Below are positions 5,898 through 34,426 of a stretch of DNA of 37,125 bases, one piece after another (the stretch's first letter is position 1; each line of letters starts with the position of its first letter). Below the pieces are notes generated by a model that worked only from the letters and a program-made list of their open reading frames with translations, ran no database searches and had not been told where the DNA came from. Location: assembly GCA_947626045.1 (NCBI GenBank), contig CANQQS010000008.1, positions 1 to 37,125 on the forward strand, given 5' to 3'. The position numbers and the translations under genes are program-made. Origin of the DNA: an uncultured Clostridia bacterium. Lineage in GTDB: Bacteria > Bacillota > Clostridia > UBA1381.

Positions 5898-5898
5898 A

Positions 5899-15367: not shown

Positions 15368-15383
15368 ATTGTCCTCCTTTGTG

Positions 15384-16886
15384 TTACTCGACCATAAGAA
15401 AGTCGCTTACCGTCTGCTGCATCTCGTCCTTATCGCAAACAAGGTCGAATACAACCGACTTATTCTTGAGCGCAGCGAGCGATTCGGGGATTTTCATTCC
15501 GCTCTTTTCGCTAAGCTCGTTAAGCAATGTAAACTCGTCCTTGCCCACAACAGCGTTGTGATCCTCAAGCGCGATAAGCACGCTCTGATTGAATTTGAAC
15601 GGGCTTGCCGTTGACGCTATAACCGTCTTTGTCTTGTCGCCCGTTTCCGCGACGTACTTATCGTATACGGCTTTCGCAACGGCTGTGTGAGTGTCCATTA
15701 CGTAGTCGTATTCCTTAGCCGTTTTCCTGATTGCCGCCATTGTTTCGGCATCGTCGCAGTAACCTGCCGAAAACAGCGACTGCATCTTTGCCTTAACGTC
15801 GGCGGACACCTCATACACGCCGTCCGACGCAAGCTTTGCCATAAGGTCTCTTACAGCCGCGTCGTCGCAGCCGGTAAGGTCGTATAAAAATCTTTCGAGG
15901 TTGCTCGAAATCAAAATGTCCATTGACGGCGAGATTGTCGTGTGGAACGGACGGTTTTTGTTATACACACCCGTGTTTATAAACTCGGTGAGAACGTTGT
16001 TCTCATTCGACGCGCAGATAAATCTGCGTACGGGAAGTCCCATTTTCTTAGCGTAGTAAGACGCCAAGATATTGCCGAAATTGCCTGTCGGCACTACGAC
16101 GTTTATCTCGTCGCCGTTTTTGATGTCGCCGCTCTTTATAAGCTCGGCATACGCGGAGAAGTAGTAAACTATCTGCGGCACAAGTCTGCCCCAGTTTATC
16201 GAGTTCGCAGACGACAGGCTGAATTTGTTGCGCTCGAGAAGCGTCTTGTACGCCTCGTCGGTAAATATCTTCTTTACGCCGTTCTGCGCGTCGTCAAAGT
16301 TACCCTTTACAGCCGCAACCGATACGTTGTCGCCCTCCTGCGTAACCATTTGGAGCTTTTGTATCTCGCTTACGCCGTTGTCGGGATAAAATACGATTAT
16401 TCTCGTGCCGTCAACGTCCCGAAATCCCGCGAGAGCCGCCTTGCCCGTGTCGCCCGACGTGGCGACAAGAATTACGACCTCTTTGTCCTCGTTTGTCTTT
16501 TTCATGGACGTTGTAAGCAGGTGCGGCAGAATTTGCAGCGCCATATCCTTAAACGCACATGTCGGTCCGTGCCACAGCTCGAGAACGTATACGGTGTCGC
16601 TGAGCTTATACACCGGAGCAATCGCGCTTGTACCGAATTTTTCCTTTGTATACGCGCTGTTTACGCATTTTGCAAGCTCCTCGTCCGTGAAGTCGGTGAG
16701 AAATTTGCCGAGTATAAATTTCGCTCTTTCGTTGTATGTCATCTCCGTGAGAGCGTTTATTTCCGCACGTGTAACCGTCGGAAAACTCTCAGGCACAAAT
16801 AATCCGCCCTCGCGCGAAAGTCCCTGCTTTATTGCCTGAGCGGATGATACTGATATGCTTTTGTCCCTTGTGCTTTGATATTGCAT
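15384..16886 (-). CDS. thrC: Threonine synthase
   Basis: MQYQSTRDKSISVSSAQAIKQGLSREGGLFVPE, LELWHGPTCAFKDMALQ, VATSGDTGKAALAGF, PTGNFGNILASYYAKKMGLP. Confidence 0.96.
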   Translation of the reverse strand: MQYQSTRDKSISVSSAQAIKQGLSREGGLFVPESFPTVTRAEINALTEMTYNERAKFILGKFLTDFTDEELAKCVNSAYTKEKFGTSAIAPVYKLSDTVYVLELWHGPTCAFKDMALQILPHLLTTSMKKTNEDKEVVILVATSGDTGKAALAGFRDVDGTRIIVFYPDNGVSEIQKLQMVTQEGDNVSVAAVKGNFDDAQNGVKKIFTDEAYKTLLERNKFSLSSANSINWGRLVPQIVYYFSAYAELIKSGDIKNGDEINVVVPTGNFGNILASYYAKKMGLPVRRFICASNENNVLTEFINTGVYNKNRPFHTTISPSMDILISSNLERFLYDLTGCDDAAVRDLMAKLASDGVYEVSADVKAKMQSLFSAGYCDDAETMAAIRKTAKEYDYVMDTHTAVAKAVYDKYVAETGDKTKTVIASTASPFKFNQSVLIALEDHNAVVGKDEFTLLNELSEKSGMKIPESLAALKNKSVVFDLVCDKDEMQQTVSDFLMVE

Positions 16887-18979: not shown

Positions 18980-19016
18980 TACAAAATTTGAATTTTTCTC
19001 ATAAGTTTTTAAACAC

Positions 19017-19050
19017 TGCAAAAAGACAGCCGTAAAGAGCTGTCTTTGCA
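19017..19050 (-). terminator. Terminator at the 3' end of the 19-28.6 kb gene block
   Basis: Reverse strand AAAGACAGC-TCTTTAC-GGCTGTCTTTTTGCA hairpin with T tract. Confidence 0.7.
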
Positions 19051-19126
19051 TATAGGTTATTTCCGTTTCAAACAGCTTTATTGCTAACATTCTCATTTCA
19101 GCCGCTTTGAAGGCGCATCCGAGTAA

Positions 19127-20209
19127 TCAGCGGATACCGGCAAACCTGTCTATTTTTTGAGCATATAGAATAAACCACTGCAGTTCATCGCTGTCTTCGT
19201 CTTTCAGCACACATATGCCTATCGAATTATAATCCTCGTCAGCAAGATAAGTGTCATCGGTGAGCAGTTTTCTCAGTGCCTCATCAACGCTTTCCGGTCC
19301 TTTTAATATAGTCATATTCACTTCACTATATTCGTCACCGGCGTCTGACTTTATGGCATCATATATGTTATACGGTAAATCGTACGGAGCCTCGGCATCC
19401 CTCGTCAGCATATCATTATTGTATTCATATGCGATACTGTCTATGTGCATATCCAAATCAAACTCATCAAGATTTATTGCCGTCCGCGCCCGATTTAACA
19501 TGGTATAAAGCGAAGCTTCAAGCTTGTTGTCCCTTTTCCTTTGCGTATTCTGCGCAGTGGGAGCCGCAGTCGGCGCTGCAGTAGGTTTCGTTGTCGGCTT
19601 TGCGGTCTGCTTTGTCGTCTGCTTTGTGGTTTTTACAGGTATAGTAGTTGCGGTGTTCCTCTTGTTAGACAACGAGAAAATTGCCACAACGAGTATAACA
19701 ATTCCCAAAAGCACGCCTATAGCAATCAGCACGGCTTTTTTTGTGCCTTTTTTGCGGCGTTCTTTTTTCTGTGCCGCTTCTTTTATTTTTTCATCTTCTT
19801 TTTGTTTTTGCTCGTTCAGCCGGCGAATACGCTCCTGCTCCGCTCTTACACTAGCCATATCCGAGGATTCGTTTTCATTCTTTCGCTGTTCTTCGGCAGC
19901 ACGCTCTTTTTCGCGCTGTTCCTGTGCATGGCGTTCCCTTTCTCGTTGTTCTTCGGCAAGACGTTCCCTCTCCTTTTCCTCCGCCGCGGCGCGTTCCTGC
20001 TCACGCTGCTTGACTTCATACGCTGCCGCCGCTTTTTCGCTTTCCTCTTTTCTATGTTTTTCCCATTCCTCGCGGTCGGTGTCGTTTATAATCGGATCAC
20101 CGTACAAATCAAGATCACTGCCGCACTTTTCACAGCGTACCACACCGGCGTTGTTTATAGTTCCGCAATGCCTGCATTTGATATGCTTATAACCTCCGTT
20201 TATTGACAT
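19127..20209 (-). CDS. Zinc-ribbon / charged coiled-coil / TM protein with C-terminal CAP(SCP)-like domain
   Basis: N-terminal CRHCG...CEKCG, RE/AEEQ-rich coiled coil, TM AVLIAIGVLLGIVILVVAIFSL, TTKPTAAPTAAP linker, C-terminal LYTMLNRARTAINLDEF...SIGICVLKDEDSDELQWFILYAQ resembling a divergent CAP fold. Confidence 0.6.
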   Translation of the reverse strand: MSINGGYKHIKCRHCGTINNAGVVRCEKCGSDLDLYGDPIINDTDREEWEKHRKEESEKAAAAYEVKQREQERAAAEEKERERLAEEQRERERHAQEQREKERAAEEQRKNENESSDMASVRAEQERIRRLNEQKQKEDEKIKEAAQKKERRKKGTKKAVLIAIGVLLGIVILVVAIFSLSNKRNTATTIPVKTTKQTTKQTAKPTTKPTAAPTAAPTAQNTQRKRDNKLEASLYTMLNRARTAINLDEFDLDMHIDSIAYEYNNDMLTRDAEAPYDLPYNIYDAIKSDAGDEYSEVNMTILKGPESVDEALRKLLTDDTYLADEDYNSIGICVLKDEDSDELQWFILYAQKIDRFAGIR

Positions 20210-20289
20210 GTTGAATACACCCCCATATATTTATTCAAGTCTCTTGGGATCGGGACCGTACATATTCGGACTCGGATCCCCTTCTTAAA

Positions 20290-22107
20290 TTAATTTCCTG
20301 CCATAAACTGCGCTTGGCAAATACCGGCGCCGAAATATTCACGATTGCCCATGTCCACGCAGTAGTCCTGTATGTATTTCTTCACCTGCTCAGGTGACGC
20401 ATCCGGCACTATCAGCTTTACCATTGCCGCGAGAGCCGTTATATGAGGAGCCGCCATTGATGTTCCGTTCTCAAATTCGACATGAATACCGTTGTCCAAA
20501 ACATTCGTTCCTCTTAAGCCGTCGTCCTGTTTCTGCCAATCCATATCCCTTAAAATTTCGCTGACGTCGCTGTCGTCCTTCCAGTAACTCAAAATATCCA
20601 CTCCGGGTGCGGCAACGGAAACAGAGTCGCCGTAGTTTGAGAAATCGGCAATGTTATGATTCGCGTCATACGCAGATACAACGATACAGTCCATTATCCT
20701 TGAGGGGCTGTAGTTTGCCGTGTCGTCCGACTTGTTGCCCGCCGCTGCAACGACCGTTACTCCCTCTTTAATAACTTTTTTTACAACATAATCATATTCC
20801 GCGCTGGCGAATCCCGATAGGCTGAGATTGATTACATCCGCTCCGTGTTCGGCGGCATATTCGATACCGTTAAGAATCGTAAGAGTATTGCCTATGCTGT
20901 ACTGGATAACACGAACCGGCAAAATGTTCACATTAAGCCCCTGTGTCGCGTCGAGCACAATTCCGGCGACGTGTGTGCCGTGACCGTTGACAGCGTCTGT
21001 GCCGTCACCGCCTATAACGCAGTCATAACCGGGTAAAATTCTGTCCTCAGTTTCCGCATTCGGCACAACTCCGCTGTCAACCACAGCCACAGTCACACTG
21101 TTATCGGTGTAATTTTCATTGAGCCACGCGTCAAGGCAGTCAAGTCCGAGGTCTATCACGCCCCATGAATAATATGTGTAACCGCTGTAATTCGAAATAT
21201 ATTGCTCATTGTACTCCTGACCGGTCGTGGGCGCGGTGACGCCGCTGTCGGTAAAATTTTGGTATGTATCCTCCTCAATATATTGCACGCCGTCAAGCTG
21301 CTTGAGCGCTTCCATACAGTGCCGCGCATCTTCCTCATTTTTGAATTGTATTACAACTCTGTTATCCTCACGCCATATTACTTTGTCTGCCGGAAAATCG
21401 CTTAAATCGAGTTTACTTCCCTCAAATCTAAGCATAATCCTGTTCGTGGGTCGTTCTCCCGAAATTACCTGCTCGTCGTCGTATTGATTTTTAAGCTCGT
21501 TAAGCCGCTCTTCGAAATCGTCTGCGGACACGGTTCTCTTAAGCTCCGTATTGTCTCCGACCTTTACAGCGGCAGCGCTTCCTCTGAAAATTATAAGCAG
21601 TGCAACAGCAGCCACCACCGCCGCAGCAGCAATGCAGACCGTAACTATCGGCAGCACACGGCGTTTCTTCTTTTTCTTCGCGCCGTTATCCGGCTGCCGC
21701 GTTCCCTTGTTATTATTTCCTTTCGCGGTTCTCTTTTCTGTCTCTTTGTCGTCCTCTTTATCCGACGATTCCAGTTCACGCAGAGCGGAAACAGCGTCCG
21801 CACTGCCGAGTTCCGCGGCCTTTTGGTACCATTTGACGGCTGTCGGTATTGATTTCTTCACAGCCCAGCCGTAACGGAACATCTGCGCCATGGCAAGGAC
21901 GGACGGTATGTGGTCGGCATTCGCCGATTTTTCCATTAGCCATACCGCTTCTGCCGCATCGTACCCTTTTTGGTATTTTGAGAGAAGATTGTCGGCAAGG
22001 TAATACTGAGCCGTAGGGTCGTTTGCGGCAGAGCGGTACCACTCCAGTTTTTTTTCGTCGATATTTTCCCCTTCCCATACTTTCAGTTCGTCATTGTACA
22101 TTATCAT
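20290..22107 (-). CDS. SEL1-repeat / TM / S8 subtilisin-like protease
   Basis: SEL1 repeats (AVKWYQKAAELGSADAVSAL), TM VLPIVTVCIAAAAVVAAVALLIIF, catalytic triad AVVDSGV / GHGTHVAGI / NGTSMAAPH. Confidence 0.9.
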   Translation of the reverse strand: MIMYNDELKVWEGENIDEKKLEWYRSAANDPTAQYYLADNLLSKYQKGYDAAEAVWLMEKSANADHIPSVLAMAQMFRYGWAVKKSIPTAVKWYQKAAELGSADAVSALRELESSDKEDDKETEKRTAKGNNNKGTRQPDNGAKKKKKRRVLPIVTVCIAAAAVVAAVALLIIFRGSAAAVKVGDNTELKRTVSADDFEERLNELKNQYDDEQVISGERPTNRIMLRFEGSKLDLSDFPADKVIWREDNRVVIQFKNEEDARHCMEALKQLDGVQYIEEDTYQNFTDSGVTAPTTGQEYNEQYISNYSGYTYYSWGVIDLGLDCLDAWLNENYTDNSVTVAVVDSGVVPNAETEDRILPGYDCVIGGDGTDAVNGHGTHVAGIVLDATQGLNVNILPVRVIQYSIGNTLTILNGIEYAAEHGADVINLSLSGFASAEYDYVVKKVIKEGVTVVAAAGNKSDDTANYSPSRIMDCIVVSAYDANHNIADFSNYGDSVSVAAPGVDILSYWKDDSDVSEILRDMDWQKQDDGLRGTNVLDNGIHVEFENGTSMAAPHITALAAMVKLIVPDASPEQVKKYIQDYCVDMGNREYFGAGICQAQFMAGN

Positions 22108-23395
22108 CTTCTCCCCTCGAAGGATAATATACGGTGAACGCGCACCAGAACACGATGCAGAAAATACAAGTGGATATGAACGCGCCTATATTGCCAATGC
22201 CTCCTATGGTAGTCGCCGCAAGCGTTGTCACTGTGCCGCTTATAAGACTGCCTAGCAGCATTCGCCGCGACACGGAACGATACATAACCCACGAAGCAAT
22301 CATTCCGTACAGTATGAACATAACCAAACGAACGATTATTTTCCACAGATTCAGATCGTCATATCCGTAAGGCAAATATCCGTCTCCCGTCTTTATTCTT
22401 AACGGACCGTGTTTTGAACCGATCCGCTCTCTTTTTTGGTTATCATTCGGATCATTCACGCCGTCATCCTCATACGCTTCACGCAGCGCTTGGAGCAGAT
22501 TGTCGGGGTTAAAGCTGTTTTTGTCAAGCTGCGTCTCAAATCCGCCCGTTGACTCGGCAAATTCTATTATTTCTCCCCTCATTTCCGGATTTTCAACACT
22601 CTCTTCTGTGTCTATGCTTATCACGTAAACGGGGATTCCTTCTTCTTTATATGTCTTCCGTATGCTGTCGCTGACCTCGCTGTCGCCGTCCGTCATCAGT
22701 ATTACCGCCTTTTTCTTCGCGCCGCTGTCGGAAAGCGTGTTATACGCAGTTTCAAGCGCGGCGTTAAAATCGGTTGTACCTATGTGGTCGGTGCGGTTTA
22801 TGGCAGCTTTAAGACTTCTTTTGCCCGTTTGGTCAAGAGTTGTAATATCGGTACATTCATAAACCACCGACGTAAACGCTATATACTGCATGGCGGTATC
22901 GTCGCCGAGCTCGTCAATGAGTTCACAAGCAGCCGACTTGCATATTTCCGTTTTATCACCGTCAGCCGACTGAAAATCCCGCATACTGCTCGAAAAGTCC
23001 AAAAGCAGAGACACATTTGTCACCGCGTCGTCCTGTTTCGGAGCGGCTGTGGGCTCTGTTATCGGAGCGGGTTCCGCCTCCACGGTATTCCTCGTAAAGT
23101 CAAGCGCATACAGCATTTCACCGCCGCAGCCGACTATTGCCGACAAAACAAACGCGCATATAAACGAAACAACCCTGTTTCCCTTCCGATGTATTATGTA
23201 TTTCTTGTTATGTATATATTCCGCAAGCGCCATACCGATCAGAGAAAAAATCAGAGGCAGAGTAAAATACATGCCGCTCAATATCACAGGTTCAAGCTCC
23301 GATGAAAAACCCAGAGCCAAAGCCGGCAAAGCCGCGGCAAGCGACAGTACCATTGTAAACAAGAGCATAAGCCAGTCGAATTTAAGACGCCTCAT
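22091..23395 (-). CDS. Membrane-anchored vWA-domain protein
   Basis: N- and C-terminal TM helices flanking vWA with MIDAS LLLDFSSSM ... GTTDFNAAL ... VILMTDGDSE. Confidence 0.88.
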   Translation of the reverse strand: MRRLKFDWLMLLFTMVLSLAAALPALALGFSSELEPVILSGMYFTLPLIFSLIGMALAEYIHNKKYIIHRKGNRVVSFICAFVLSAIVGCGGEMLYALDFTRNTVEAEPAPITEPTAAPKQDDAVTNVSLLLDFSSSMRDFQSADGDKTEICKSAACELIDELGDDTAMQYIAFTSVVYECTDITTLDQTGKRSLKAAINRTDHIGTTDFNAALETAYNTLSDSGAKKKAVILMTDGDSEVSDSIRKTYKEEGIPVYVISIDTEESVENPEMRGEIIEFAESTGGFETQLDKNSFNPDNLLQALREAYEDDGVNDPNDNQKRERIGSKHGPLRIKTGDGYLPYGYDDLNLWKIIVRLVMFILYGMIASWVMYRSVSRRMLLGSLISGTVTTLAATTIGGIGNIGAFISTCIFCIVFWCAFTVYYPSRGEDDNVQ

Positions 23396-23406
23396 TCAAA
23401 TACCTC

Positions 23407-24534
23407 CTATCCGATTTTCTGAGGACTCCAGTAATTGCTTCCTATGTAGTCCGCGAACCCTGTCTGTATTCCATGCCAGATTTCCTCGCCGGCAGGCAGA
23501 GACAGGTATCCCTCACCGCTGTTTCTTATCGCTGAAAACGTGTGCAGGACGGGTATATGACAAGCCACCGGATTGTAGCCTGCGTATCTGCCGTCAGGTA
23601 TAAATACGGGTCTGCCGTATTCGTCGCGGTCGTCAAGCTCCAATCCGCCGTATATCTGTACCTGACACATATCCGCGGTCATTCCCGCCTGCTCGAATAT
23701 TTCTCCGTACATTCTGCGGCATTCCTTGTAAAGCCCTGTTCTCACGCTTCCGGAAAGCTCCGCATCCGCTTCGGAGTCACGGTAATGCTCCGTATTCTCA
23801 AACTGCGATATTATAAGCTCAACCACTCTCTTTTTAAGCGCTTCGCCGTATGACAAGAGAATCTGCTTTACCATACCCTCATACTCCGTTTCCGCATGTT
23901 CGGAAATCGAGCCCGGCACGAGAATCCACACCGCATTTGCCTGATTTATATAACGGCTTATATCCGCGTCGGGCGTCACACATATGAAATTCATTTCAAG
24001 CGCCTTGTTGGGGTAGCCGGACTTGTGTATGCTGAATCTCAGGCGGCAGTTGCTCGGCGCGTTTCCCTTGTATACGGGCCACTTTATATCAGTCGTTAAG
24101 CCGTTAAAGCAATTTTCTATTCCTATTTTTATCTCGGACATTACCGGCATGGTTTCCTCGGAAAGAGAACATGCCATGCCGCTTTTGACAAGCGTGTCCT
24201 CTGTATTCTGCCACATCGAGCAAAGGAAGTCCTCGGCGATTTCCAATGTTTCTCCTATAATGAGAGCATCAAGCCTTCCGTCGGGCATTGCTCGAAACTC
24301 CGGTGCTTCATACGGCGGAATGTCGGGCATCGGATAGGCATCGGAATTTACACTCACTTGCTCCTCATGGTTTTGATTTGTGTCGATTGGCGTAAACGGC
24401 TCAGGTTTTACATTATCCGCCGGTTGGTACGGTGGCTGAACCGTATCATTCTTTTCCTTTCGTTTGAACCAGCTTATCCTTTTTTTCTTTTTCCCGTCCC
24501 GCTCGCCGTCTATCCCCATAGTACCAAACGGCAT
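23407..24534 (-). CDS. Conserved-looking hypothetical, possibly a degenerate (P-loop-less) GTPase-fold protein
   Basis: ORF in the same-strand block; LDALIIGETLEIAEDFL, ANAVWILVPGSI and VVELIISQFE strands resemble GTPase core strands without a P-loop. Confidence 0.5.
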   Translation of the reverse strand: MPFGTMGIDGERDGKKKKRISWFKRKEKNDTVQPPYQPADNVKPEPFTPIDTNQNHEEQVSVNSDAYPMPDIPPYEAPEFRAMPDGRLDALIIGETLEIAEDFLCSMWQNTEDTLVKSGMACSLSEETMPVMSEIKIGIENCFNGLTTDIKWPVYKGNAPSNCRLRFSIHKSGYPNKALEMNFICVTPDADISRYINQANAVWILVPGSISEHAETEYEGMVKQILLSYGEALKKRVVELIISQFENTEHYRDSEADAELSGSVRTGLYKECRRMYGEIFEQAGMTADMCQVQIYGGLELDDRDEYGRPVFIPDGRYAGYNPVACHIPVLHTFSAIRNSGEGYLSLPAGEEIWHGIQTGFADYIGSNYWSPQKIG

Positions 24535-24565
24535 GTCAATCCAGCTCCTTCCAAAAATATATGTG

Positions 24566-25240
24566 TCAAGAATTTATAAATTTCTTTTCAAATTCGGTCA
24601 GGGTGATAACATATTTCGGCTGTTTTCTCCACACGCGCCCCTCACCGAAATATCGGCTTAAATCCTGCCACGATTCCGCCGTCACCGCGAAACGCAGCAA
24701 ATCCTTCTCGTTGAGTATTCCGTTCTCGCGTTTTAGTATCTTTGCAATCATCTTGCCACCCGCGCTTGACGACAGCAATTTAAAATCTATTCTTTCACTG
24801 CCTGCCGTCATATAATTCAAAAAGCGGCTCACGTCTATTCCGTACCCGAAGCTTCCTCCAACGGTCATACATGCGGACAGCATCCGGCAAAATTCCGTAT
24901 ATCTTCCCAGAACAAACGCCGCGACATTCTCAAGGTCTCCGCACTCGTCGCTTCCCGCCCTGAAAACGATATTGACAATTCCCCGTCTGCCGCCGAAACT
25001 CGCTTCAATTCGCCGTATACCGAGAATCCCGCCGCACGGCTCGGGGAACAGCGCGCCGCTTTTTAAGGGATATTCGCGCCACAGAACTTTGAAACGGTCG
25101 TACGAGAAGAAATCCCAAACGTCGGCAGGCAGATTTACGCCCATGCTTCCATCTGCCGGAATCAGACCGTTTTCGGTAAGGCACGACGGAAAGAAACCCC
25201 TTGCCGAATTCTCATATGTGCAGTAAAAATAAATGTCCAT
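24566..25240 (-). CDS. Hypothetical protein, possible GTPase-associated protein (GAP1-N-like)
   Basis: MDIYFYCTYENSARGFFPSCLTENGLIPADG...; sits directly downstream of a GTPase gene (14 nt gap); family assignment tentative. Confidence 0.4.
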   Translation of the reverse strand: MDIYFYCTYENSARGFFPSCLTENGLIPADGSMGVNLPADVWDFFSYDRFKVLWREYPLKSGALFPEPCGGILGIRRIEASFGGRRGIVNIVFRAGSDECGDLENVAAFVLGRYTEFCRMLSACMTVGGSFGYGIDVSRFLNYMTAGSERIDFKLLSSSAGGKMIAKILKRENGILNEKDLLRFAVTAESWQDLSRYFGEGRVWRKQPKYVITLTEFEKKFINS

Positions 25241-25254
25241 ATTATCCCCTTTTA

Positions 25255-26292
25255 TTACAGCCTTCCCGCATTATCCTGTATGACAAGGAAACCGTCATCT
25301 GAATACGGACCGGTACCCTTCTTCATCTTCTTGCGCAGTATCTCGAGCGGATAAATCAACTCATTCCTGTTTATTTTCAATGATTTGTTTGATGTGTTTA
25401 TCTCTTCAAGCGTTTTCGAAAGAATGTATACAAGCGAGTATATCATGGGCTGCTCGCAGAATTTCGGAGCGTAGCCGCGCTCGTAGTCCTTAAGAAACTC
25501 GGCTTCCTGATACAGCGACACGACTTTGCCCGTTTCCGAATCTTTTTTGAAATGCACAAAATCAATACCGCCCGCGGAAAGTATCGGCGTAATTGCTATA
25601 GAGCAGCCCATAACAAGCTGCGGCGACGATCTCAGATAGTGAATAAGCTCTCTGTACCCGTCGCCTACCGCGTTTACAAGCTCCTGCATATAATTGCGCC
25701 TGAACGCGTTAAGCTCAATCGTGTGGGTAAGATGATAGTATCTCTCGCACTTTATCGGCACGAAAAGTATAAGACGCTCGGAAATATCGTCAACGGTAAG
25801 ACTGTTCTTGAAGAAATTCGTAATCTGCATGGGTTTATTGTATTCCTCGTGATAAATACCGTAGCCCTTATCATTCATCATCTTTGCGAACAGGTACGGA
25901 GTATCTATCGCGATTATGATAACTTGACAGTTGTGGATAAGATTTTTCACCTGTGCCTGATGATTGTCCGTCAGCCATTCTCCCGGTATATCATGTATTG
26001 AAAAAGCTATACCCTTACCTGAATTAAGCCTGATTCCGAACGAGTATGTTTTTTGCGCGTCGCTCGGATTGTCATCGACTTCCACGCGCGTCAGCGGTTT
26101 ATTGAATACGTCAAGCTTCTTTCGGATATTTTCGGTCGCGCGCATAAGCTCTCTCTGCGTCTGCTCGTTCAGTATGTCAAAGCTGAGATCCGTTCCCGCA
26201 AGCGCCTTGCCTATCTCGCTGCACATCGAGGCAAGAACTGTCGTCTTGCCGCATCTTTTTCCTCCGAGCATTAATATATTTATATCGTTCAT
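25255..26292 (-). CDS. P-loop GTPase-like protein (TRAFAC-like, double-GTPase-2-type candidate)
   Basis: MNDINILMLGGKRCGKTTVLASM (Walker A), SIHDIPGEWL (DxxG), QVIIIAIDTPYL, ERLILFVPIKCE. Confidence 0.7.
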   Translation of the reverse strand: MNDINILMLGGKRCGKTTVLASMCSEIGKALAGTDLSFDILNEQTQRELMRATENIRKKLDVFNKPLTRVEVDDNPSDAQKTYSFGIRLNSGKGIAFSIHDIPGEWLTDNHQAQVKNLIHNCQVIIIAIDTPYLFAKMMNDKGYGIYHEEYNKPMQITNFFKNSLTVDDISERLILFVPIKCERYYHLTHTIELNAFRRNYMQELVNAVGDGYRELIHYLRSSPQLVMGCSIAITPILSAGGIDFVHFKKDSETGKVVSLYQEAEFLKDYERGYAPKFCEQPMIYSLVYILSKTLEEINTSNKSLKINRNELIYPLEILRKKMKKGTGPYSDDGFLVIQDNAGRL

Positions 26293-26310
26293 TTATCTTT
26301 CCTCCCAAAA

Positions 26311-28596
26311 TCAAAAATGCAAAGTTCCCGCCATGTCTCTCATGAGCAGCTTTGTACCGTTGTACTTTGTGATAATTTCATTGACGTCCTTATATCTGTC
26401 CGCGTTATCCTCCCACAGCTTCTGACTGTACTGCATGAAGAAGTTGCCCCATACCATGCTCATATCCGTGAAGCTGTTTTCGTCGCTTTTGTTGTCAAAG
26501 TTAATCGCAAATGTTATTCTGTCGTAAAACTCCTCGGCAGCGGCGTAAAATGTCTGGTTCGGACGTCTGTACAGCTGGGAAAGCGAATGTCTGAGTTCGT
26601 CCTCTATAACCGCGAGGCGCGACGTGAGATAATAATGCACCTCGTCGCCGGCACTGCTTGCACGGAACACGTACTGAGGCGGCACGTAGTAATCCTCGGC
26701 AAGCGGATTGAGTGTGTAGAGCTGCTTTCTCACTTCCTGAATTACATTTTCCTTTATGCTGAATTCAAAATTGTAAAGGAATTGGAATGCCTTGTAAATC
26801 TGCGTGTACTGCTCCTGTCCGCCTATGACGTTGTCCATCATGTTTTTGAGCCATGCGAGCATATCCACATCATCGCCGCCCTCGTCCGACCCGCTTGTCT
26901 GCTGCGAGAATATATTGTTAAGCGCGTAATACATATGCTTTACAAGAGAGTTTTTAAACTCAAGCGTTTCTTTCTGCATCGCCCCGTCGATTTCGTTGAA
27001 GCTGTCGGTTATCTCATTGCGGACATAGTTGCACGCCGCCTCCCACAGAGCGTTTGGCATCATTGCGCCGTTCTTGTTTATAATTTCCTGCAGCTCGTCG
27101 GCGCTCGGCGCAACGCTGTCCATCTTGTTCAGGATAACCTGTACCTTGCTCCACAACGCGCCGTTTGACTGATTTCTTTTCTTGCTCCAATCGGACACCT
27201 GGCTTTTAAGCTGCGCCGTCATATCCTTGTATGTTTTCTGACCCATCATAAAAGCCTGCTGCGCTATTGCCTGACCGACGTTCTTCTCCTTTATCTCCGG
27301 CAGCTCCGTTACCATTTTGTTGACCATATTAATTAATTTGCTGCCGATTGAGTTAATATTTTCCAGATATTTTGCGTCGATTTCATCCATATTCCGCGTA
27401 AGCGTGTCAAGAAGCGGCATCATAAAATCATTATTTACCGCGTCCTTGTCGGAGCAGTCAACCTTTTTGCAAAAGCATATATCGAAATTGTTATTCTTTA
27501 CTCCGTTCAGAAACGCGTCTACTGCGTTATCGTTTACGCCTTTATGCAGATTTGCTATGTAGAAAAGCCATTTTCCCATCGCTCTGTCCGAAAAATTATC
27601 CCGAAGCGTCTGATACAGCTTTATATCCGGGTCGTGTACATCAGATATAGGCTTTGTCACAACAATGGCGGCGTCGCAAAGCTTATCCACGGTGTCAAGC
27701 ATCGCCTTGTCAATGCCGACCTGCGTATCGCCTATACCTATAGTATCTACAAGAACAATCTTGCCGCAGTCCTCGTAAAAGCGGCAGGATATTTCCGCTC
27801 TGCCTACGGCGAGATAATTGTAATAGTATTCCACATCGGGGTCGGTGGCTTTCTTGCCGTTGTTCTGTGCTACATACGACTTTATCAATTCAGGGTCGGT
27901 AAGCGTTATTGAATGACTTCCGAAAAGCGGGCTTATCTCATCGAAGTTATCTATTATGTCCTGAAGGTGCTTTAAAGCTATAGACTTTTCAGCCTCGTCA
28001 TTGCGTATCTTGCCTTTAAGCTCGGTAATAATATTTGCGTCGTCAATATCGTAAAAGCCAAATTCACTCGTTAGATATGGAGAAGACGGATCTATCTGCT
28101 TTATATATTCTTTAACGGTTTTAACAAGGTCTGACTGCTGTTTAAATGTTATAAGCACAGACACCGTTTCGGGCGCCATTTCAGGTCTGTTATATATGAC
28201 GGAGGTGGCGCCTGTACAGTCGCTCGCGTCATAGGCGGGAATAATTTCGTTGCCGAGGTTTCCGACTGCCTGAAGGAATCGGCTCTTGCCCTGACGCGCC
28301 ATTCCAACCGTGGCAATGGCAATATGATCACGCTCAAACCGCGCTATTGCGTTATTTATAAGATTATTGTACCTTTGCAGCTCTTTTCTCAGCGCGCCGG
28401 TGCTTATACTGCCGAACTCCGACGCGTAATCGCTGCGAATCTCGGCATCTGGCAGGTTTTCCACCTCTTTCTTGTAGCTTTCCAACGAAGCGATATACGA
28501 TTGCAGTGTTTTAACGCTCTCTCTGCTCTGTCTCAGCCTGTCCGCTTTTTTCTTGCGCTCCGCCAGGATACTGTCAATTTGATCCTTAACTGCCAT
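26311..28596 (-). CDS. Dynamin-like / large GTPase
   Basis: GMARQGKSRFLQAV (G1), DCTGATSVIYN (G2), VLVDTIGIGDTQ (G3), AAIVVTKPISD (G4-like), long helical C-terminal half. Confidence 0.8.
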   Translation of the reverse strand: MAVKDQIDSILAERKKKADRLRQSRESVKTLQSYIASLESYKKEVENLPDAEIRSDYASEFGSISTGALRKELQRYNNLINNAIARFERDHIAIATVGMARQGKSRFLQAVGNLGNEIIPAYDASDCTGATSVIYNRPEMAPETVSVLITFKQQSDLVKTVKEYIKQIDPSSPYLTSEFGFYDIDDANIITELKGKIRNDEAEKSIALKHLQDIIDNFDEISPLFGSHSITLTDPELIKSYVAQNNGKKATDPDVEYYYNYLAVGRAEISCRFYEDCGKIVLVDTIGIGDTQVGIDKAMLDTVDKLCDAAIVVTKPISDVHDPDIKLYQTLRDNFSDRAMGKWLFYIANLHKGVNDNAVDAFLNGVKNNNFDICFCKKVDCSDKDAVNNDFMMPLLDTLTRNMDEIDAKYLENINSIGSKLINMVNKMVTELPEIKEKNVGQAIAQQAFMMGQKTYKDMTAQLKSQVSDWSKKRNQSNGALWSKVQVILNKMDSVAPSADELQEIINKNGAMMPNALWEAACNYVRNEITDSFNEIDGAMQKETLEFKNSLVKHMYYALNNIFSQQTSGSDEGGDDVDMLAWLKNMMDNVIGGQEQYTQIYKAFQFLYNFEFSIKENVIQEVRKQLYTLNPLAEDYYVPPQYVFRASSAGDEVHYYLTSRLAVIEDELRHSLSQLYRRPNQTFYAAAEEFYDRITFAINFDNKSDENSFTDMSMVWGNFFMQYSQKLWEDNADRYKDVNEIITKYNGTKLLMRDMAGTLHF

Positions 28597-28669
28597 AGTT
28601 GCTTTTTCCTCCTTTTTTCATGTCCGCCGATCTGTTCCGCAACGGTTCTCATTCTAATATTTATATGTA

Positions 28670-28700
28670 ATTCTATCACACATAATAAGATTTTTGTCGG
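28670..28700 (-). promoter_or_regulatory. Possible extended -10 promoter upstream of the dynamin-like gene
   Basis: Reverse strand TGaTAGAAT extended -10, weak CCGACA -35 with 19 nt spacer. Confidence 0.35.
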
Positions 28701-28714
28701 TTTTATTTCCGCAT

Positions 28715-28754
28715 AAAAAAATATCCGCGCCGCAAGAAGCGGACACGGATATGT
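28715..28754 (-). terminator. Rho-independent terminator after the lipoprotein gene
   Basis: Reverse strand ATATCCGTGTCCGCTTCTTGCGGCGCGGATATTTTTTTATG. Confidence 0.8.
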
Positions 28755-28756
28755 TG

Positions 28757-29422
28757 TCAGTTTAGCGACACGCGCCGTTCGTTTATGTTGTTTTCTATTT
28801 CGTCAAGATGCTTTGTGTATTCCCTGTTGATTTCGTCATGACTGTAAAGCCACTCGCAGTTTTCGGGAATTACCGCGGGATATTTGTATATCATATCCTT
28901 CATACAATCAGCCGCGTCTCCGCCTGCACCGGATACCAAATCCATTGCACCGTACACAAGGAACACTTTTTCAAGCTCAAGCCTGTCCTCAAATAAATCG
29001 GACAGTATTTTAAGGGTTTCGAAATCAGCTGTTTCCTGTATGCTGTCCTTAAACATTAAATTTTCCATGCTCTCTCTCTGCGAATAGAAGAGATAATCAT
29101 AGTCTGTCCTCGGTATATTCATGCTGTCCATTACGTCATACTCTCTGTCTCCGATATTGGACTGTACAGAAGCGCTCTCTTCCGCGGCAGCATCGCTTTC
29201 AGCCGCAGCGGCGTTCAGCTTTTCCATATTCTCGTCCGTCGGATTTTCCGTGTATGCTCGAATTGCCAGCACTGTGTTTTCGTATGCCTCAAACACTGCA
29301 TTGTCGCTCCTTATAACCTGCTCCAAATCGGGTATTATTTTATCCCTGTACACATCGCTTGTGTTCGTTGCACAGCCCGCAAGCAAAACGGCCGTCAGTA
29401 ATAAAAAAGATAATTTCTTCAT
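28757..29422 (-). CDS. Predicted lipoprotein, uncharacterised
   Basis: Lipobox signal MKKLSFLLLTAVLLAGC; helical body; ATGA overlap with the upstream kinase gene. Confidence 0.75.
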   Translation of the reverse strand: MKKLSFLLLTAVLLAGCATNTSDVYRDKIIPDLEQVIRSDNAVFEAYENTVLAIRAYTENPTDENMEKLNAAAAESDAAAEESASVQSNIGDREYDVMDSMNIPRTDYDYLFYSQRESMENLMFKDSIQETADFETLKILSDLFEDRLELEKVFLVYGAMDLVSGAGGDAADCMKDMIYKYPAVIPENCEWLYSHDEINREYTKHLDEIENNINERRVSLN

Positions 29423-32211
29423 GTTTCGTCTCCTTTTATTTCACTCATTATTGACTCAAGATAATTCATGCGAAGCTCAAGGCTGTGCACCGAGTTTTCC
29501 AAATCAGCAGTGCTTATTTCGAGCGCGCCGTTAAAATCCATAACAACGTCGCCGCTGCCCTTCATCGCTTCTTTTATAACGCCGCCGCCCTTTTCGCTGA
29601 TTGTTCGCGTCAAGAGACACAGCTCATAGCCCATAAGCTTCTCGCAGCAGGATATATACTCGCTGTAATAACCAAGATTCCTTTTTACAGTATCGGCGTC
29701 ATATCCCGATTCGGGCGACAGCGCATGTTCGAGTCTTTCAAACATATCCTTCTGAAAAGCTCGGTGTTCCCGTGACATTGACAGTATTTTGTCAACACGC
29801 TCGGTATCCAGACCCCTGTACGCCTTTTCATCAAGATTTTCTATCGTGACAGCCGCGTCTCCGAGTGCATCAAGCCTTTCTCCCGCTTCTCTTACAGATT
29901 CCGTGCCGGATGTCATATCGTTCGATTCAAGCTCCTCGATAAGATTTTTCTCGCTCGACGTCATTTGAACAACATTGTTAAGCGAAACCGCAACCGTTGT
30001 CATAATCTCGTAATTGTTTTTCTCCTCGCGGCGTCCGAGCGGGTGCGTTCCGGGCATAAACCGGTATGTAACCGCAGATGCGCAAAGACAGACCGCAATA
30101 ACAGCGGCGGTTAAAGGTACGCGTACTCCCATTGCCGCTTTTCTGTACCGTTTTGAATTTTCCTTGTTCACGGGTGACAGGCAGTCGCAAAAATTCATAT
30201 GCGCCGCGCTGTAAACACCTTTCTCGTTTTTAAGAAGCGCGGTATCGCGCACAAGTATTCCCTCCGCGGCTATGTTCATCCACTCGTCCGCGTTCTTCGC
30301 GCCGCCGAGAATTTCATCCGTCTTGCCGGCAAACTCCCTAAACGCGCGTGAAAAGGCGCGCGATTTAAGACGTCTGTAGTCGGCGGCACACACCGAACGC
30401 ACGCCGTCAAAATTCACATTCGCTCCGCCTTTCATGGAAGCGCATATTTCCGGAAACAAATATTTAAGCACGTAATTCAGTCTTGTCTGCCCGCATTTGT
30501 CATTGGGCGCAGCCCTGCGGTACGATTCGGATATACTGTCAAGATAACGGTTTATTATCTCACTTTCTGTCGTACAATTCTCCTTTGCGGCGCTGCTTTC
30601 GCGGAATACCGTTTCCGACTTTACGTACAAAGTGAGCATCAGCGGATTTGTCAAAAGGCGTGCTGTGTTCTCGTCCTCCGGATATGCGGCGCCGTGACTG
30701 TTCACATATTGCCGCGCCTGCTCATTTTCAATAGGTAAAAGTGTTACCGGCACAAAATTTTCAAGATATTCTGTCAGCGTGTCTCTTCTGAGCGACACGG
30801 ATACGGTGACAGCCGACATTTTGCTCAATTCGTTTATCTCGAGTATTATACCGCCGCTGTCTTTTATCTCATTGAAGCCGTCAAGCATCAGGTACAAAAG
30901 CGGTTTGCTGCCCCGCATCAGTTCGTCAAGTCTGTTTACGGCATCGGAAACCGTTGACACGCCATTACCGAAGCGTATTTTTGAAACAATATATCTCTTT
31001 ATAAAATCACTTTTTCCGTCGTACTCGTTAAGCGGCACAATAAAACCTATCGGTTTATCCGGCATGTACGCGCGCGTATTTTCGTACAGTATGCGTCGGT
31101 ACAGCGTAGTTTTTCCTATTCCGCCGTCACCGGAAAGCACGGTGTTTCCCATCGTTATAAGCTCGGTTGACGGAATAATCCGTCCGCCGCCCATGACATT
31201 ATTGTCGATAAGCTCTTTTTCCTCATCGCCGCATATGACACGGCTTGCCTCCCACAGGCTCGCGCGCGTGACTCCGACATTTAAAAGCCTGTTTTCCAAT
31301 TCCCTGCACGCGTGCAGCATTTCTTCCGCCGAAGCAAATCTTAAAGACGGTCTCGACCTAAGTCCCTTTGCGAGTATACCCATCAGGCAACTCACCGCGG
31401 TCGGTGGCGCGTTCTTTAAAATCGGTGAATTTAAAAGTTCCTTGTCGTTTAACGCGGCATACACAAAATCACGTCCGCTTATCATAAACACAAGTGTTGC
31501 GCATACCGAAAAAATATCCGAAGCCTCGGATATGTCATTCCTTCTGCCAAGCTTGATTTCAGGTGCGGAGTATGTTGGATTGACGCTCATGTATTCGCCG
31601 TCCGAGCCGTTAAAGTCAATGAGAAGCACGCGCTCGTCACCGTTGGCATGCGGTATGATTATGTTGTCGGGACTTATGTCGAGATGAAGTATTCCCTTTT
31701 TATGCAGCGCTCCGACAGCTTTTAAAAGCTTTATAGCAACGCGCGTTACATCTTTAAGCGTTTTTATGTCTCCGCACCGCCTGCGCAAAGTATACGCGGA
31801 ATTTAATCCAAGCAGAGAATACACGGTATTGTTTGCCTCGAACGAATCATAATTCGCTCCAACGCTGTCGGGGTCGGCTTCAAGTATTTCCAAATGTGTT
31901 TTATTACCAAGAATAAAGCTTTTTTTTCGCGACTCGAAAAACTCCTCCGCACCGTCATAACGTATCGAGCCGTCTTTATCACGGTAAACGGCATTTTTCG
32001 GGTGAAGCGGGAAAAGCTCCTTTACAATACATATATGCTTTCCTCCGCTTATAAGCGTGTCGTCATATTCGGTCTTGTACGCAAGAGAAACGCCGCCGCG
32101 TCCGATAAGCTCCGTTACGCGCAGATTTTTACCGTTATAAGTTATCGCAGTGCCGTTTTTTATAGGCTCTCTGTTATCATTCACAGCGTCCTCACTTCTT
32201 TCATTATCCAT
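29419..32211 (-). CDS. Ser/Thr protein kinase fused to NACHT/STAND-type NTPase, with TM helix and C-terminal helical region
   Basis: Gly loop LIGRGGVSLAYK, VKE lysine, HLDISPDNI catalytic loop, LLIDFNG (DFG position); P-loop VLSGDGGIGKTTLYRR and Walker B LLYLMLDGFNEI; TM VPLTAAVIAVCLCASAVTYRF. Confidence 0.85.
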   Translation of the reverse strand: MDNERSEDAVNDNREPIKNGTAITYNGKNLRVTELIGRGGVSLAYKTEYDDTLISGGKHICIVKELFPLHPKNAVYRDKDGSIRYDGAEEFFESRKKSFILGNKTHLEILEADPDSVGANYDSFEANNTVYSLLGLNSAYTLRRRCGDIKTLKDVTRVAIKLLKAVGALHKKGILHLDISPDNIIIPHANGDERVLLIDFNGSDGEYMSVNPTYSAPEIKLGRRNDISEASDIFSVCATLVFMISGRDFVYAALNDKELLNSPILKNAPPTAVSCLMGILAKGLRSRPSLRFASAEEMLHACRELENRLLNVGVTRASLWEASRVICGDEEKELIDNNVMGGGRIIPSTELITMGNTVLSGDGGIGKTTLYRRILYENTRAYMPDKPIGFIVPLNEYDGKSDFIKRYIVSKIRFGNGVSTVSDAVNRLDELMRGSKPLLYLMLDGFNEIKDSGGIILEINELSKMSAVTVSVSLRRDTLTEYLENFVPVTLLPIENEQARQYVNSHGAAYPEDENTARLLTNPLMLTLYVKSETVFRESSAAKENCTTESEIINRYLDSISESYRRAAPNDKCGQTRLNYVLKYLFPEICASMKGGANVNFDGVRSVCAADYRRLKSRAFSRAFREFAGKTDEILGGAKNADEWMNIAAEGILVRDTALLKNEKGVYSAAHMNFCDCLSPVNKENSKRYRKAAMGVRVPLTAAVIAVCLCASAVTYRFMPGTHPLGRREEKNNYEIMTTVAVSLNNVVQMTSSEKNLIEELESNDMTSGTESVREAGERLDALGDAAVTIENLDEKAYRGLDTERVDKILSMSREHRAFQKDMFERLEHALSPESGYDADTVKRNLGYYSEYISCCEKLMGYELCLLTRTISEKGGGVIKEAMKGSGDVVMDFNGALEISTADLENSVHSLELRMNYLESIMSEIKGDET

Positions 32212-32251
32212 GGCTTAAACTGTAATCTCAAGGATAATTTAACATATGCGT

Positions 32252-33373
32252 TTACGCGTCGGTCGGATTTGTTTCCGCAAATATTCTGCTCACAAGCTCC
32301 TGCATTTCGCCGAGTATCTCGTCGGAATTGTTCATCTTTACCGCGTAAAGCGCCGCCCAGTCAAAAACGCTGCGCGGATCGGGCAGAGCCATGCCGCAGT
32401 CGGTAAGCATTATGCACAGTCTGTCATAGTGTTCGCCGAACCGCTCGGCGGGCGTAAGCTCATCGTCTATAACAAAGTCATAATTTACCTCAGGCGCTAT
32501 TCCCTCCGTTATTATGTACAGCAGAATAAGCGATTTTCTCGTTATGTCCTCGGAACGACTTATCATACTCTTTATGCTCGTCGCCGACGGCCAGTATTTT
32601 TTTATCATTTTCTGAATATATGTATACTTCCCGCTCGTGCTGCCAAGCGGCACATTCATTCGTATATACCGCTCGGTTATCTCGTCAACCGAAAACCGCT
32701 CCGACTTTGGCGCAGCACCGCCCCAAAATTCTCTTTGCTGCGCCTCCGGATCGCGCAGACATTCTATAAACGTCATAAAATATTTGTACGCCGTATTGTG
32801 CAAAGCTCCGAACTTATTTATATTTTCAAGATAAAATTTTTTAAAATCCGGTACGGACGATATGTACCGAAACTCATTGTAGAGTGGCTCGGTATACACC
32901 GTTTCGTCAATGTTGTCGGGCAGCGGCGGAAGCGACTCATACAGCTTCACCGCATCGGGATAGCTCATGCCGGTTCTCAAAGCAAACGCGTATGTAAGCT
33001 CTCGCGGGTCTCTGTAGTGAAAACCGCAGTCTGACGAGCAGCACAAAAAATCCTGCGCCCTGCTTTCATTAAGCCCGAGTGCAAAGCATATCCTCATATA
33101 CGTTTCCCTGTCCGACGGCTCGCCGCCGCCAAACCAGCCGCGAACCTTTCTAGACGCACTGTCGCGGCTTAAAGACGGCGAATACTCACAAAGCGCGTCG
33201 GTGAGGATTTTCTTTACATCACCGCCGTCGGAAAATTCTCTGAGAGTTTCGCTGAATGTGCGAAGCTTCAGAGATTGATTCATGTATTCAAAAGCTTCGT
33301 CCGCCGTCATGCAGACGTTTGCTATGTGGTCATATTCGTTTTGAGAGAGCAGTGTTATATCCATTGTTATCAT
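32252..33373 (-). CDS. Uncharacterised protein with XRE/HTH-like N-terminal region
   Basis: LSRDSASRKVRGWFGGGEPSDRETYMRICFALGLNESRAQDFL resembles an HTH core; remainder alpha-helical. Confidence 0.5.
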   Translation of the reverse strand: MITMDITLLSQNEYDHIANVCMTADEAFEYMNQSLKLRTFSETLREFSDGGDVKKILTDALCEYSPSLSRDSASRKVRGWFGGGEPSDRETYMRICFALGLNESRAQDFLCCSSDCGFHYRDPRELTYAFALRTGMSYPDAVKLYESLPPLPDNIDETVYTEPLYNEFRYISSVPDFKKFYLENINKFGALHNTAYKYFMTFIECLRDPEAQQREFWGGAAPKSERFSVDEITERYIRMNVPLGSTSGKYTYIQKMIKKYWPSATSIKSMISRSEDITRKSLILLYIITEGIAPEVNYDFVIDDELTPAERFGEHYDRLCIMLTDCGMALPDPRSVFDWAALYAVKMNNSDEILGEMQELVSRIFAETNPTDA

Positions 33374-33385
33374 CCCGCAGACTTT

Positions 33386-34426
33386 TTATTTTAGTGTTTC
33401 GGCGAATTTATGCGCATGACGGGTAAGACGCTCACGCGTCTCGTCCGACATGTTGAATATGCTCGTAAACGGCTTTGAAAACGGCTTCATTCCAAAGCTT
33501 ACAAGCAATGAGTGAAGAATGTTGGCGCCCTCGCCGCTCCAGCCGTGTGAGCCGAATGTGAAAAACGGCTTGTGGCGCATAAGTACGGCGTTTACGCCGC
33601 ACAGCACGCGCGTGACGCTTTCAGCCGCGCCGCGCTCGTATGTGCCCGTTCCGGCTATTATCGCCGAAAAGGTGTTAATATCGGGCGCGTCATTCTTGTC
33701 CGCATCGCATATTTTAATGGTCACTCCCGCGTCTTCCATTTCGGCGCGTATACACTCCGCCATTTCACGTGTTACGCCGTAGTGTGACGAGTACAGAATA
33801 AGCACGGTTTTATTTTTCTCCCACTCGCGGTATTTGTCAAGCAGTCCGCCGTAAAAATCGAATGCCGTTTGAATATCCGCGCCGCGTAAAACATCACTGT
33901 CAGCGGGCATGACCGCCGTTATTTTAAGCTCCGACAGCCTTTTAAGTGCGTTTTCCACGTAGTCGGGGTACGTCATAAGGTTCTCGCCTTCCGAAAACAG
34001 GTCGCAGCTAAAGAGCGTGCCGCTATTTTCCTCATACGTTACCATGCTATCGGGCCAGCTGAGGTTTGGAGTTATTATAAATCGCAGCACTGCGCCGTTT
34101 CCGAGTTTGAGCAGCGCGTTATCCTTAGCCGCCTGCTCACGGAACGGTCGGCTGTACATTTCCTTTAAATTCCTTATACCCGCCACGGTGGCGATAACCT
34201 CCGCGTCAGGATAACTTTCCAGTACCGCGCTGAGTCCGTATGACCTGTTAGGCTCGGTGTGATTTAAAATCACATAGTCAAGCGGTCTGCCGCTTAAAAT
34301 TTCCGCAATATCGCGTACAAGCGCGTCCTCGCCGCCGCGCGGCGCGGTGTCGATAAGCGCGGCTTTGCCGCCTATAACAAGGTACGCGCTGCCGATATGA
34401 TATATAATATTCTCACTTACTTGCAT
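33386..34426 (-). CDS. Flavodiiron (FprA-like) protein with degenerate di-iron site
   Basis: SAYLVIGGKAALIDTAP, LNHTEPNRSYG, ITPNLSWPDSMVTY, LFSCDLF, flavodoxin VLILYSSHYGVTREMAE; likely start 34426 (MQVSEN). Confidence 0.75.
   Translation of the reverse strand: MQVSENIIYHIGSAYLVIGGKAALIDTAPRGGEDALVRDIAEILSGRPLDYVILNHTEPNRSYGLSAVLESYPDAEVIATVAGIRNLKEMYSRPFREQAAKDNALLKLGNGAVLRFIITPNLSWPDSMVTYEENSGTLFSCDLFSEGENLMTYPDYVENALKRLSELKITAVMPADSDVLRGADIQTAFDFYGGLLDKYREWEKNKTVLILYSSHYGVTREMAECIRAEMEDAGVTIKICDADKNDAPDINTFSAIIAGTGTYERGAAESVTRVLCGVNAVLMRHKPFFTFGSHGWSGEGANILHSLLVSFGMKPFSKPFTSIFNMSDETRERLTRHAHKFAETLK

What the first reader, a model, noticed from the sequence alone, without database searches (positions are those of the whole stretch)
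19127..33373. Multi-gene kinase-NACHT / GTPase / vWA / subtilisin membrane cassette inserted among housekeeping genes
Ten same-strand genes, mostly with short gaps or overlaps, combine regulators and effectors rarely seen together: HTH-like protein, kinase-NACHT fusion, lipoprotein, dynamin-like GTPase, second GTPase, possible GTPase-associated protein, degenerate GTPase-like protein, membrane vWA, SEL1-TM-S8 protease, zinc-ribbon-TM-CAP-like protein. The parts recall NTP-dependent conflict systems (double-GTPase/GAP1, vWA, S8 peptidase, STAND) described by comparative genomics from the Aravind group (from memory). I do not recall this exact composition. TM topology suggests a device with GTPases/NTPase inside and vWA, protease and CAP-like domains outside.
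Basis: partly seen in the sequence, partly recalled or inferred. Interest (0 to 1): 0.88.

Follow-up and report, generated by a model that had tools for sequence, protein, structure and literature searches.

The report
Dynamin–GTPase–protease surface operon, two modules
A stretch of gut-bacterium DNA carries a conserved but apparently undescribed set of genes in which GTP-powered switches inside the cell are packaged with a membrane-anchored protease and rapidly changing surface proteins outside it, next to a separate kinase-sensor unit that is usually found without it.

Summary
The ten genes are real and lie where stated, but they are two units, not one cassette. J-I-H (J protein, kinase-NACHT-TM, lipoprotein) ends in a strong predicted terminator; G-F-E-D-C-B-A follows with a promoter-like site and its own terminator. 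Relatives agree. A genome scan gave 47 loci, mostly gut and rumen Clostridia; the dynamin-like GTPase (G) lies beside the small GTPase (F) in 45, and 12 besides the window carry the full order G-F-E-D-C-B. These S8-type loci form one clade of G (100/100). J plus a kinase accompanies the operon in only three of 17 S8-type loci, window included, and occurs elsewhere without it. G folds as a dynamin. F passes the DO-GTPase2 cut-off. D is an F paralogue without a P-loop. E is a new family; GAP1 membership was not supported. Protease triad, vWA MIDAS and GTP motifs are conserved. A is the variable part: zinc ribbon, TM, and at least seven unrelated ectodomain types. Sister species show the empty site. 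Best mechanism (inferred): a GTPase assembly under the membrane gates an extracellular subtilase that processes or releases the A proteins. Defence remains possible but has little support. New variant of a known kind; no description found in the literature searched.

The parts
32252..33373 (-). Starts 12 bp after the ODP-flavodoxin gene.
   Evidence: No Pfam/NCBIfam hit; relatives in 5 of 388 class genomes; next to kinase-STAND genes in L082, L144, L145 and a kinase in L094
29419..32211 (-). I: protein kinase - NACHT - TM (about 696-714) - extracytoplasmic helical tail
   Evidence: Pfam Pkinase and NACHT above cut-off; TM; full-length homologue 45% identical only in G416
28757..29422 (-). H: lipoprotein (lipobox LLAGC), overlaps I by 4 bp
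   Evidence: Sequence; no homologue found in the loci; similarity to the C-terminus of the G416 kinase not significant (E 0.11)
28721..28752 (-). Predicted intrinsic terminator after H (ATATCCG...CGGATAT then T7), followed by a promoter-like site (28679-28651) and a strong RBS before G
   Evidence: Fold -23.3 kcal/mol over 60 nt; promoter scan; sequence. Predictions, not experiments
26311..28596 (-). G: dynamin-superfamily large GTPase, 761 aa
   Evidence: AF2 pLDDT 87.4, Foldseek SynDLP/BDLP/IniA; P-loop, DCTGA and DTxG invariant in 17 class I copies
25255..26292 (-). F: small TRAFAC-type GTPase, DO-GTPase2 family, Walker B 'DIPGE'
   Evidence: PF19993 30.8 bits over cut-off 27; motifs invariant in 17 copies
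24566..25240 (-). E: new 224-aa family; predicted strand/helix order resembles a longin-type GTPase-regulator domain plus a helical C-terminal part
   Evidence: In 42 of 47 loci; AF2 pLDDT 94.1; no significant PDB or viral fold match
23407..24534 (-). D: pseudo-GTPase paralogue of F with the P-loop lost
   Evidence: hhalign D versus F E 5.2e-12; no GxxxxGK[ST] in 15 of 15
22091..23395 (-). C: three N-terminal TM, extracytoplasmic vWA with intact MIDAS, two C-terminal TM
   Evidence: Pfam VWA; TM; MIDAS columns
20290..22107 (-). B: cytosolic Sel1 repeat - TM (154-172) - extracytoplasmic subtilase with intact D344/H376/S550; closest NCBIfam model is type VII mycosin, below cut-off
19127..20209 (-). 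A: cytosolic zinc ribbon - Lys/Glu-rich linker - TM (160-178) - 182-aa ectodomain of no recognised family; variable component of the operon
19020..19047 (-). Predicted intrinsic terminator after A (AAAGACAGC...GCTGTCTTTTT)
18982..33397 (.). Inserted segment, about 14.4 kb, between the last codons of ODP and the PGI promoter
   Evidence: Junctions by alignment with the empty sites in G028 and G026 (coordinates)

Best explanation
The locus is two adjacent modules brought into the ODP-PGI interval. The main one, G-F-E-D-C-B-A, is a GTPase-gated surface-protein processing machine. Shown: G is a dynamin-fold GTPase and F a DO-GTPase2 relative, both with intact GTP motifs; D is an F-like pseudo-GTPase; C puts a MIDAS vWA and B a subtilase with an intact triad outside the membrane; A proteins share a cytosolic zinc ribbon and a TM but carry unrelated ectodomains; G-F-E-D-C-B is kept in order as one lineage. 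Inferred: F and D form a GTPase/pseudo-GTPase pair regulated by E (a longin-type regulator if the fold hint is right); G assembles on the inner face in a GTP-dependent way; this clusters or opens the C-B membrane complex; A proteins are recruited through their cytosolic zinc ribbons; B then matures or releases their ectodomains. J-I-H is a separate kinase-STAND sensing unit that may signal to the operon here but is not part of it.
For: Synteny: G-F adjacent in 45 of 47 loci, E in 42, full G-F-E-D-C-B in 12 plus the window. One clade for the S8 type, 100/100. Correlated divergence between genes, r 0.83-0.96. Catalytic residues conserved, P-loop lost only in D. Dynamin fold. ZnR-TM-variable ectodomain gene after B in every S8-type locus with complete sequence there. 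Alternative protease in the sister class: G-FFF-EE plus three M48 paralogues, of which exactly one has HExxH, so a GTPase core plus a protease is a recurrent theme. Two transcription units. Empty site in sisters.
Against: No experiment. At least 18 class III loci have G-F-E without a recognised adjacent protease, so proteolysis cannot be the only output. That A is the substrate of B is inferred from gene position and topology only. The longin resemblance of E is below significance (best E 0.07). Divergence correlations have no host-phylogeny control. Terminators and promoters are predictions.
Confidence: 0.4

Rival explanations
1. Anti-phage or other conflict system: infection is sensed by E, G or the kinase-STAND protein, the GTPases switch, and protease, vWA and A proteins damage or seal the envelope (abortive infection), as proposed for DO-GTPase/GAP1 systems.
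For: F is a DO-GTPase2 relative and such systems are proposed to be conflict systems (PMC7159879). Sporadic distribution: 1 of 70 genomes of the family. Variable component A. Bacterial dynamin DynA gives phage resistance (PMC8844932). Type I and II restriction-modification and AbiE genes flank a few loci.
Against: Defence genes flank only about three of the loci and no control was run; no classical effector (nuclease, TIR, pore former) in the conserved operon; absent from the phage and viral collections searched; variable ectodomains face outside and include LRR/DUF285 and pectate-lyase-like types, more like adhesion or surface exposure than intracellular sensing.
Confidence: 0.25
2. GTPase-controlled adhesion or surface-display apparatus: C (extracellular vWA/MIDAS) and the A ectodomains bind partners or host glycans, and the GTPases control assembly and release at the surface in an inside-out manner.
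For: Extracellular MIDAS conserved in all copies aligned; A ectodomains of LRR/DUF285 and pectate-lyase-like adhesive types; most S8-type loci come from gut and rumen genomes.
Against: The window A ectodomain has no recognised adhesive domain; the conserved active protease is better explained by processing; the gut bias may reflect the genome collection.
Confidence: 0.2
3. All ten genes form one device, with J-I-H as its dedicated sensor.
For: Same strand and same insertion; J and a kinase also sit just upstream of G in L094 and near it in L099.
Against: Terminator and promoter-like site between H and G; J/I absent beside 14 of 17 S8-type loci, some of which end soon after G; J-kinase pairs occur without G-F-E in G416, G170 and G314.
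Confidence: 0.1
4. Envelope-stress or membrane-repair system: the dynamin senses membrane damage and the protease clears surface proteins.
For: Dynamin fold; DynA is implicated in membrane surveillance in Bacillus (PMC8844932 abstract).
Against: Sporadic distribution and variable A proteins are unusual for a housekeeping stress system.
Confidence: 0.05

Closest known systems
DO-GTPase / GAP1-N2 GTPase-centric systems (Kaur et al. 2020, PMC7159879)
   Same: DO-GTPase2-family GTPase with the D-x-P-G-E Walker B; two GTPase paralogues; membrane components; extracellular TM-vWA protein; variable component; in Firmicutes
   Different: Dynamin-fold GTPase always next to F (the paper never mentions dynamin); no GAP1-N/M/C detected; no FNIII, tubulin or HSP70 component; subtilase or M48 protease and ZnR-TM-ectodomain proteins instead
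Bacterial dynamin-like proteins and operon pairs (BDLP, SynDLP, IniA, LeoABC, DynA)
   Same: Fold of G
   Different: Known pairs are dynamin with dynamin; here the dynamin is paired with a DO-GTPase2-type small GTPase and E
Type VII secretion mycosin (TIGR03921)
   Same: Closest named model for B: membrane-anchored extracytoplasmic subtilase (E 5e-40)
   Different: 137.6 bits against a cut-off of 278.75; Sel1 repeats on the cytosolic side; no ESX genes in the operon
Longin-domain regulators of Rag/Rab GTPases and MglB-type regulators of bacterial MglA
   Same: Order of strands and helices in E; several longin-containing GTPase-regulator complexes among the best but non-significant Foldseek hits
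   Different: No significant fold or sequence match; analogy only

Membership tests
DO-GTPase/GAP1 system (Kaur 2020) | DO-GTPase family GTPase | tested here: met
   PF19993 30.8 bits, cut-off 27; Walker B DIPGE
DO-GTPase/GAP1 system (Kaur 2020) | GAP1 protein (GAP1-N/M/C) | tested here: not met
   No GAP1 Pfam hit in E or relatives up to E 0.1; hhalign versus GAP1-N2 proteins probability 0.3%. The reference set was narrow and GAP1-N1 was tested only through Pfam
DO-GTPase/GAP1 system (Kaur 2020) | FNIII-repeat (GAP1-N2 type) or GASH (GAP1-N1 type) component | tested here: not met
   No FNIII or GASH hit in the ten proteins; that the Pfam copy holds a GASH model was not checked
Dynamin superfamily (protein G) | Dynamin GTPase plus helical-stalk fold | tested here: met
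   Foldseek 44 hits with E <= 0.001, the best all dynamin superfamily
Dynamin superfamily (protein G) | GTP hydrolysis and membrane remodelling | not testable with these tools
   GTP motifs intact; activity needs biochemistry
Type VII mycosin (protein B) | Equivalog score and ESX context | tested here: not met
   137.6 < 278.75 bits; no ESX genes in the operon
Anti-phage defence system | Known defence components | tested here: not met
   PADLOC hits only to generic kinase and subtilase parts
Anti-phage defence system | Location among defence genes | tested here: inconclusive
   A few restriction-modification and AbiE genes among 94 flanking proteins, two added by hand, no control
Anti-phage defence system | Protection against phage | not testable with these tools
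   Needs phage challenge
Longin/roadblock regulators (protein E) | Significant fold match | tested here: inconclusive
   Strand/helix order fits; best Foldseek E 0.07
CAP/SCP superfamily (A ectodomain) | Profile match to CAP | tested here: not met
   No CAP hit up to E 0.1

The most novel reading that the evidence does not exclude
The dynamin-DO-GTPase-E triad is an ancient, undescribed bacterial signalling core in which a longin-type regulator controls a small GTPase and its pseudo-GTPase partner to drive dynamin assembly, coupled in different lineages to different proteases (extracellular subtilase, M48 with two dead paralogues) and, in Clostridia, to a polymorphic set of zinc-ribbon-anchored surface proteins: a bacterial GTPase-gated ectodomain-processing machine with no known equivalent.
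Probability: 0.25. Interest if true: 0.85.

Novelty: new variant of a known kind. Interest (0 to 1): 0.62.

Why it matters
It links three things not linked in the sources found here: a bacterial dynamin, a DO-GTPase-type switch and a membrane protease with polymorphic surface proteins. Bacterial dynamins mostly lack known partners, and DO-GTPase systems are known only from comparative genomics. A compact operon with a switch, a pseudo-GTPase, a likely regulator, a protease and an obvious candidate substrate makes the question of what bacterial dynamins are regulated by, and what they do at the membrane, directly testable.

Tried and rejected
One ten-gene system: rejected (terminator after H; J-I-H distributed separately). 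E as GAP1-N2: tested by Pfam and hhalign, not supported; a second attempt with more GAP1 proteins picked wrong reading frames for several rows and is not relied on. H as a split-off C-terminus of I: not significant (E 0.11). CAP domain in A: no profile support. Phage or virus carriage: no relatives in phage or viral collections. PDB sequence search with G and F profiles gave only coiled-coil or insignificant hits. Fold search of E against viral models: nothing. Third gene of the Aulosira and Nonomuraea loci as E homologues: position and tail-TM fit, but profile support is weak (Aulosira E 2e-4 in a one-to-one comparison, Nonomuraea none). Dedicated integrase for the insert: none present.
Full report
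What is there. The window is a whole contig of a 2.6-Mb Clostridia genome. Ten minus-strand genes occupy 19127-33373 as described. In order of transcription they are J (373 aa), I (930), H (221), G (761), F (345), E (224), D (375), C (434), B (605) and A (360). Upstream lie RpoD, PrmA and an ODP-flavodoxin gene; downstream lie phosphoglucose isomerase (PGI) and threonine synthase.

Domains. I is kinase-NACHT, B is Sel1-S8 and C is vWA, all above Pfam cut-offs; F passes the DO-GTPase2 cut-off; D, E, H and J match nothing above cut-off. G is only weakly dynamin-like by sequence, but its AlphaFold model (pLDDT 87) matches SynDLP (E 4e-12), BDLP (7e-11) and IniA (3e-9), and the 44 matches with E <= 0.001 are led by dynamin-superfamily structures. 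D aligns with F along 242 columns (E 5e-12) and has lost the P-loop in all 15 copies. Hydropathy gives one TM in A, B and I and five in C. With the charge pattern this puts the vWA, the subtilase and the A ectodomain outside and the Sel1 repeat and zinc ribbon inside (inference from topology).

Two transcription units. The only sizeable gap, 160 bp between H and G, begins with a strong hairpin followed by seven T (fold -23.3 kcal/mol), then a promoter-like site and a strong ribosome-binding site (sequence). A second hairpin-T tract follows A at 19020-19047, and the PGI promoter is retained behind it. These are predictions.

Insertion. In sister species G028 and G026 (PGI 97% identical) ODP is followed directly by PGI. 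Alignment puts the junctions at the last codons of ODP and just upstream of the PGI promoter, so about 14.4 kb (18982-33397) is inserted and a 16-17 bp spacer is replaced. No integrase lies in the insert. A third sister, G024, carries an unrelated 14.1-kb recombinase/integrase element about 35-60 bp away in the same interval. G was not found in any of 69 other genomes of the family.

Conservation of the operon. A genome-collection scan with an F alignment returned 47 loci, mostly gut and rumen Clostridia, with a few Selenomonadaceae and Bacteroidota. G and F are adjacent in 45; the exceptions are L117, where G is cut by the contig end, and L130, where the order differs; E is found in 42. Three classes appear. 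Class I is G-F-E-D-C-(C)-B: complete in 12 loci plus the window, with 17 loci in one clade of G supported 100/100. Class II is G-FFF-EE followed by three M48 paralogues, exactly one of which keeps HExxH. Class III is G-F-E alone. G-F pairs also occur in Cyanobacteria and an actinomycete. Among class genomes with DO-GTPase2 proteins only the known three (window, G118, G335) have G beside them, so this is a distinct subset. Within class I the subtilase triad, the MIDAS and the GTP motifs are conserved, and gene-to-gene divergence correlates at r 0.83-0.96 (no host-phylogeny control).

The variable end. In every class I locus with complete sequence after B, the next one or two genes encode an N-terminal zinc ribbon, a linker and a TM. 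Ectodomains fall into at least seven groups without BLAST similarity: DUF285/LRR, MORN, pectate-lyase-like, the window type and others without known domains. Two further groups are short or cut by contig ends and are not counted. The CAP-like reading of the window ectodomain has no profile support.

The J-I-H unit. A full-length homologue of I was found only in G416, where J and I sit beside two BDLP-type dynamins, an M48 peptidase and a zinc-ribbon protein, without G-F-E. J is rare (5 of 388 genomes). It pairs with kinase-NB-ARC-TPR proteins in G170 and G314, with a kinase-Big_2 protein just upstream of G in L094 and near a kinase in L099. This is a recurrent signalling pair in its own right, present next to the operon in three of 17 class I loci; some loci are too short upstream to judge.

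E. E gives a confident model (pLDDT 94) without a significant PDB match. Its strand-helix order (three strands, helix, three strands, two helices) is that of a longin domain if the second strand is split, and longin-bearing GTPase-regulator complexes recur among the top hits (GATOR1-KICSTOR, SEAC-EGOC, FLCN, Lst4), but the best E is 0.07. This is a hint that E regulates F, not evidence of kinship. GAP1-N2 kinship was not supported, although the same genome carries a true GAP1-N2 protein elsewhere.

Mechanism. Most likely (0.4): a GTPase assembly on the inner face gates the C-B membrane complex, and B processes or releases A ectodomains recruited through their zinc ribbons. Shown: parts, topology, active-site conservation, co-inheritance. 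Inferred: the F-D pair, E as regulator, gating, A as substrate. A conflict role (0.25) rests on the kinship of F with DO-GTPase systems (PMC7159879), sporadic distribution and variability; neighbouring defence genes are few and uncontrolled.

Novelty. Searches of the open-access literature for dynamin together with DO-GTPase, conflict systems, M48, mycosin or vWA found no description; the key paper does not mention dynamin. Subscription papers and preprints were not searchable. The parts are known and the kind (NTPase-switched multi-gene membrane system) is known; the combination appears new.

Noticed in passing
L079 (G024:C3) 4320-6158 and 15063-16250: A sister species carries an unrelated 14.1-kb element with a serine recombinase and a tyrosine integrase in the same ODP-PGI interval, so the interval has been used at least twice.
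   Followed up: partly
L146 (G000:C80) 1398-5379; L147, L148, L149: GAP1-N2-type proteins in the same family of bacteria sit directly downstream of ABC-exporter genes (annotated in L146/L147), a GAP1 context not compared here with the published ones.
   Followed up: no
L011, L013, L103, L105-L107, L112, L116, L118: Class II loci carry exactly three M48-peptidase paralogues, of which exactly one keeps the HExxH motif.
   Followed up: partly
L082 (G416:C118) 286-12138: Zinc-ribbon protein, two BDLP-type dynamins, an M48 peptidase, then J and a kinase-NACHT protein: another dynamin-protease neighbourhood.
   Followed up: partly
L144 (G170) 7517-11830; L145 (G314) 1540-6105: J-family protein paired with kinase-NB-ARC-TPR proteins: a recurrent kinase-STAND signalling pair without a name.
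   Followed up: partly
L143 (G047) 8722-10735: J-family gene followed by a DUF285-type surface lipoprotein between an ABC-transporter set and rpoB.
   Followed up: no
window 3797-5897: Protein ending in NPKTGD-TM-KRK (sortase-type signal) next to a sortase-like protein (TLSTC motif); read by eye only.
   Followed up: no
window 396-2216: Membrane protein with an HEMTH motif, resembling a BlaR1/M56-type sensor peptidase; read by eye only.
   Followed up: no
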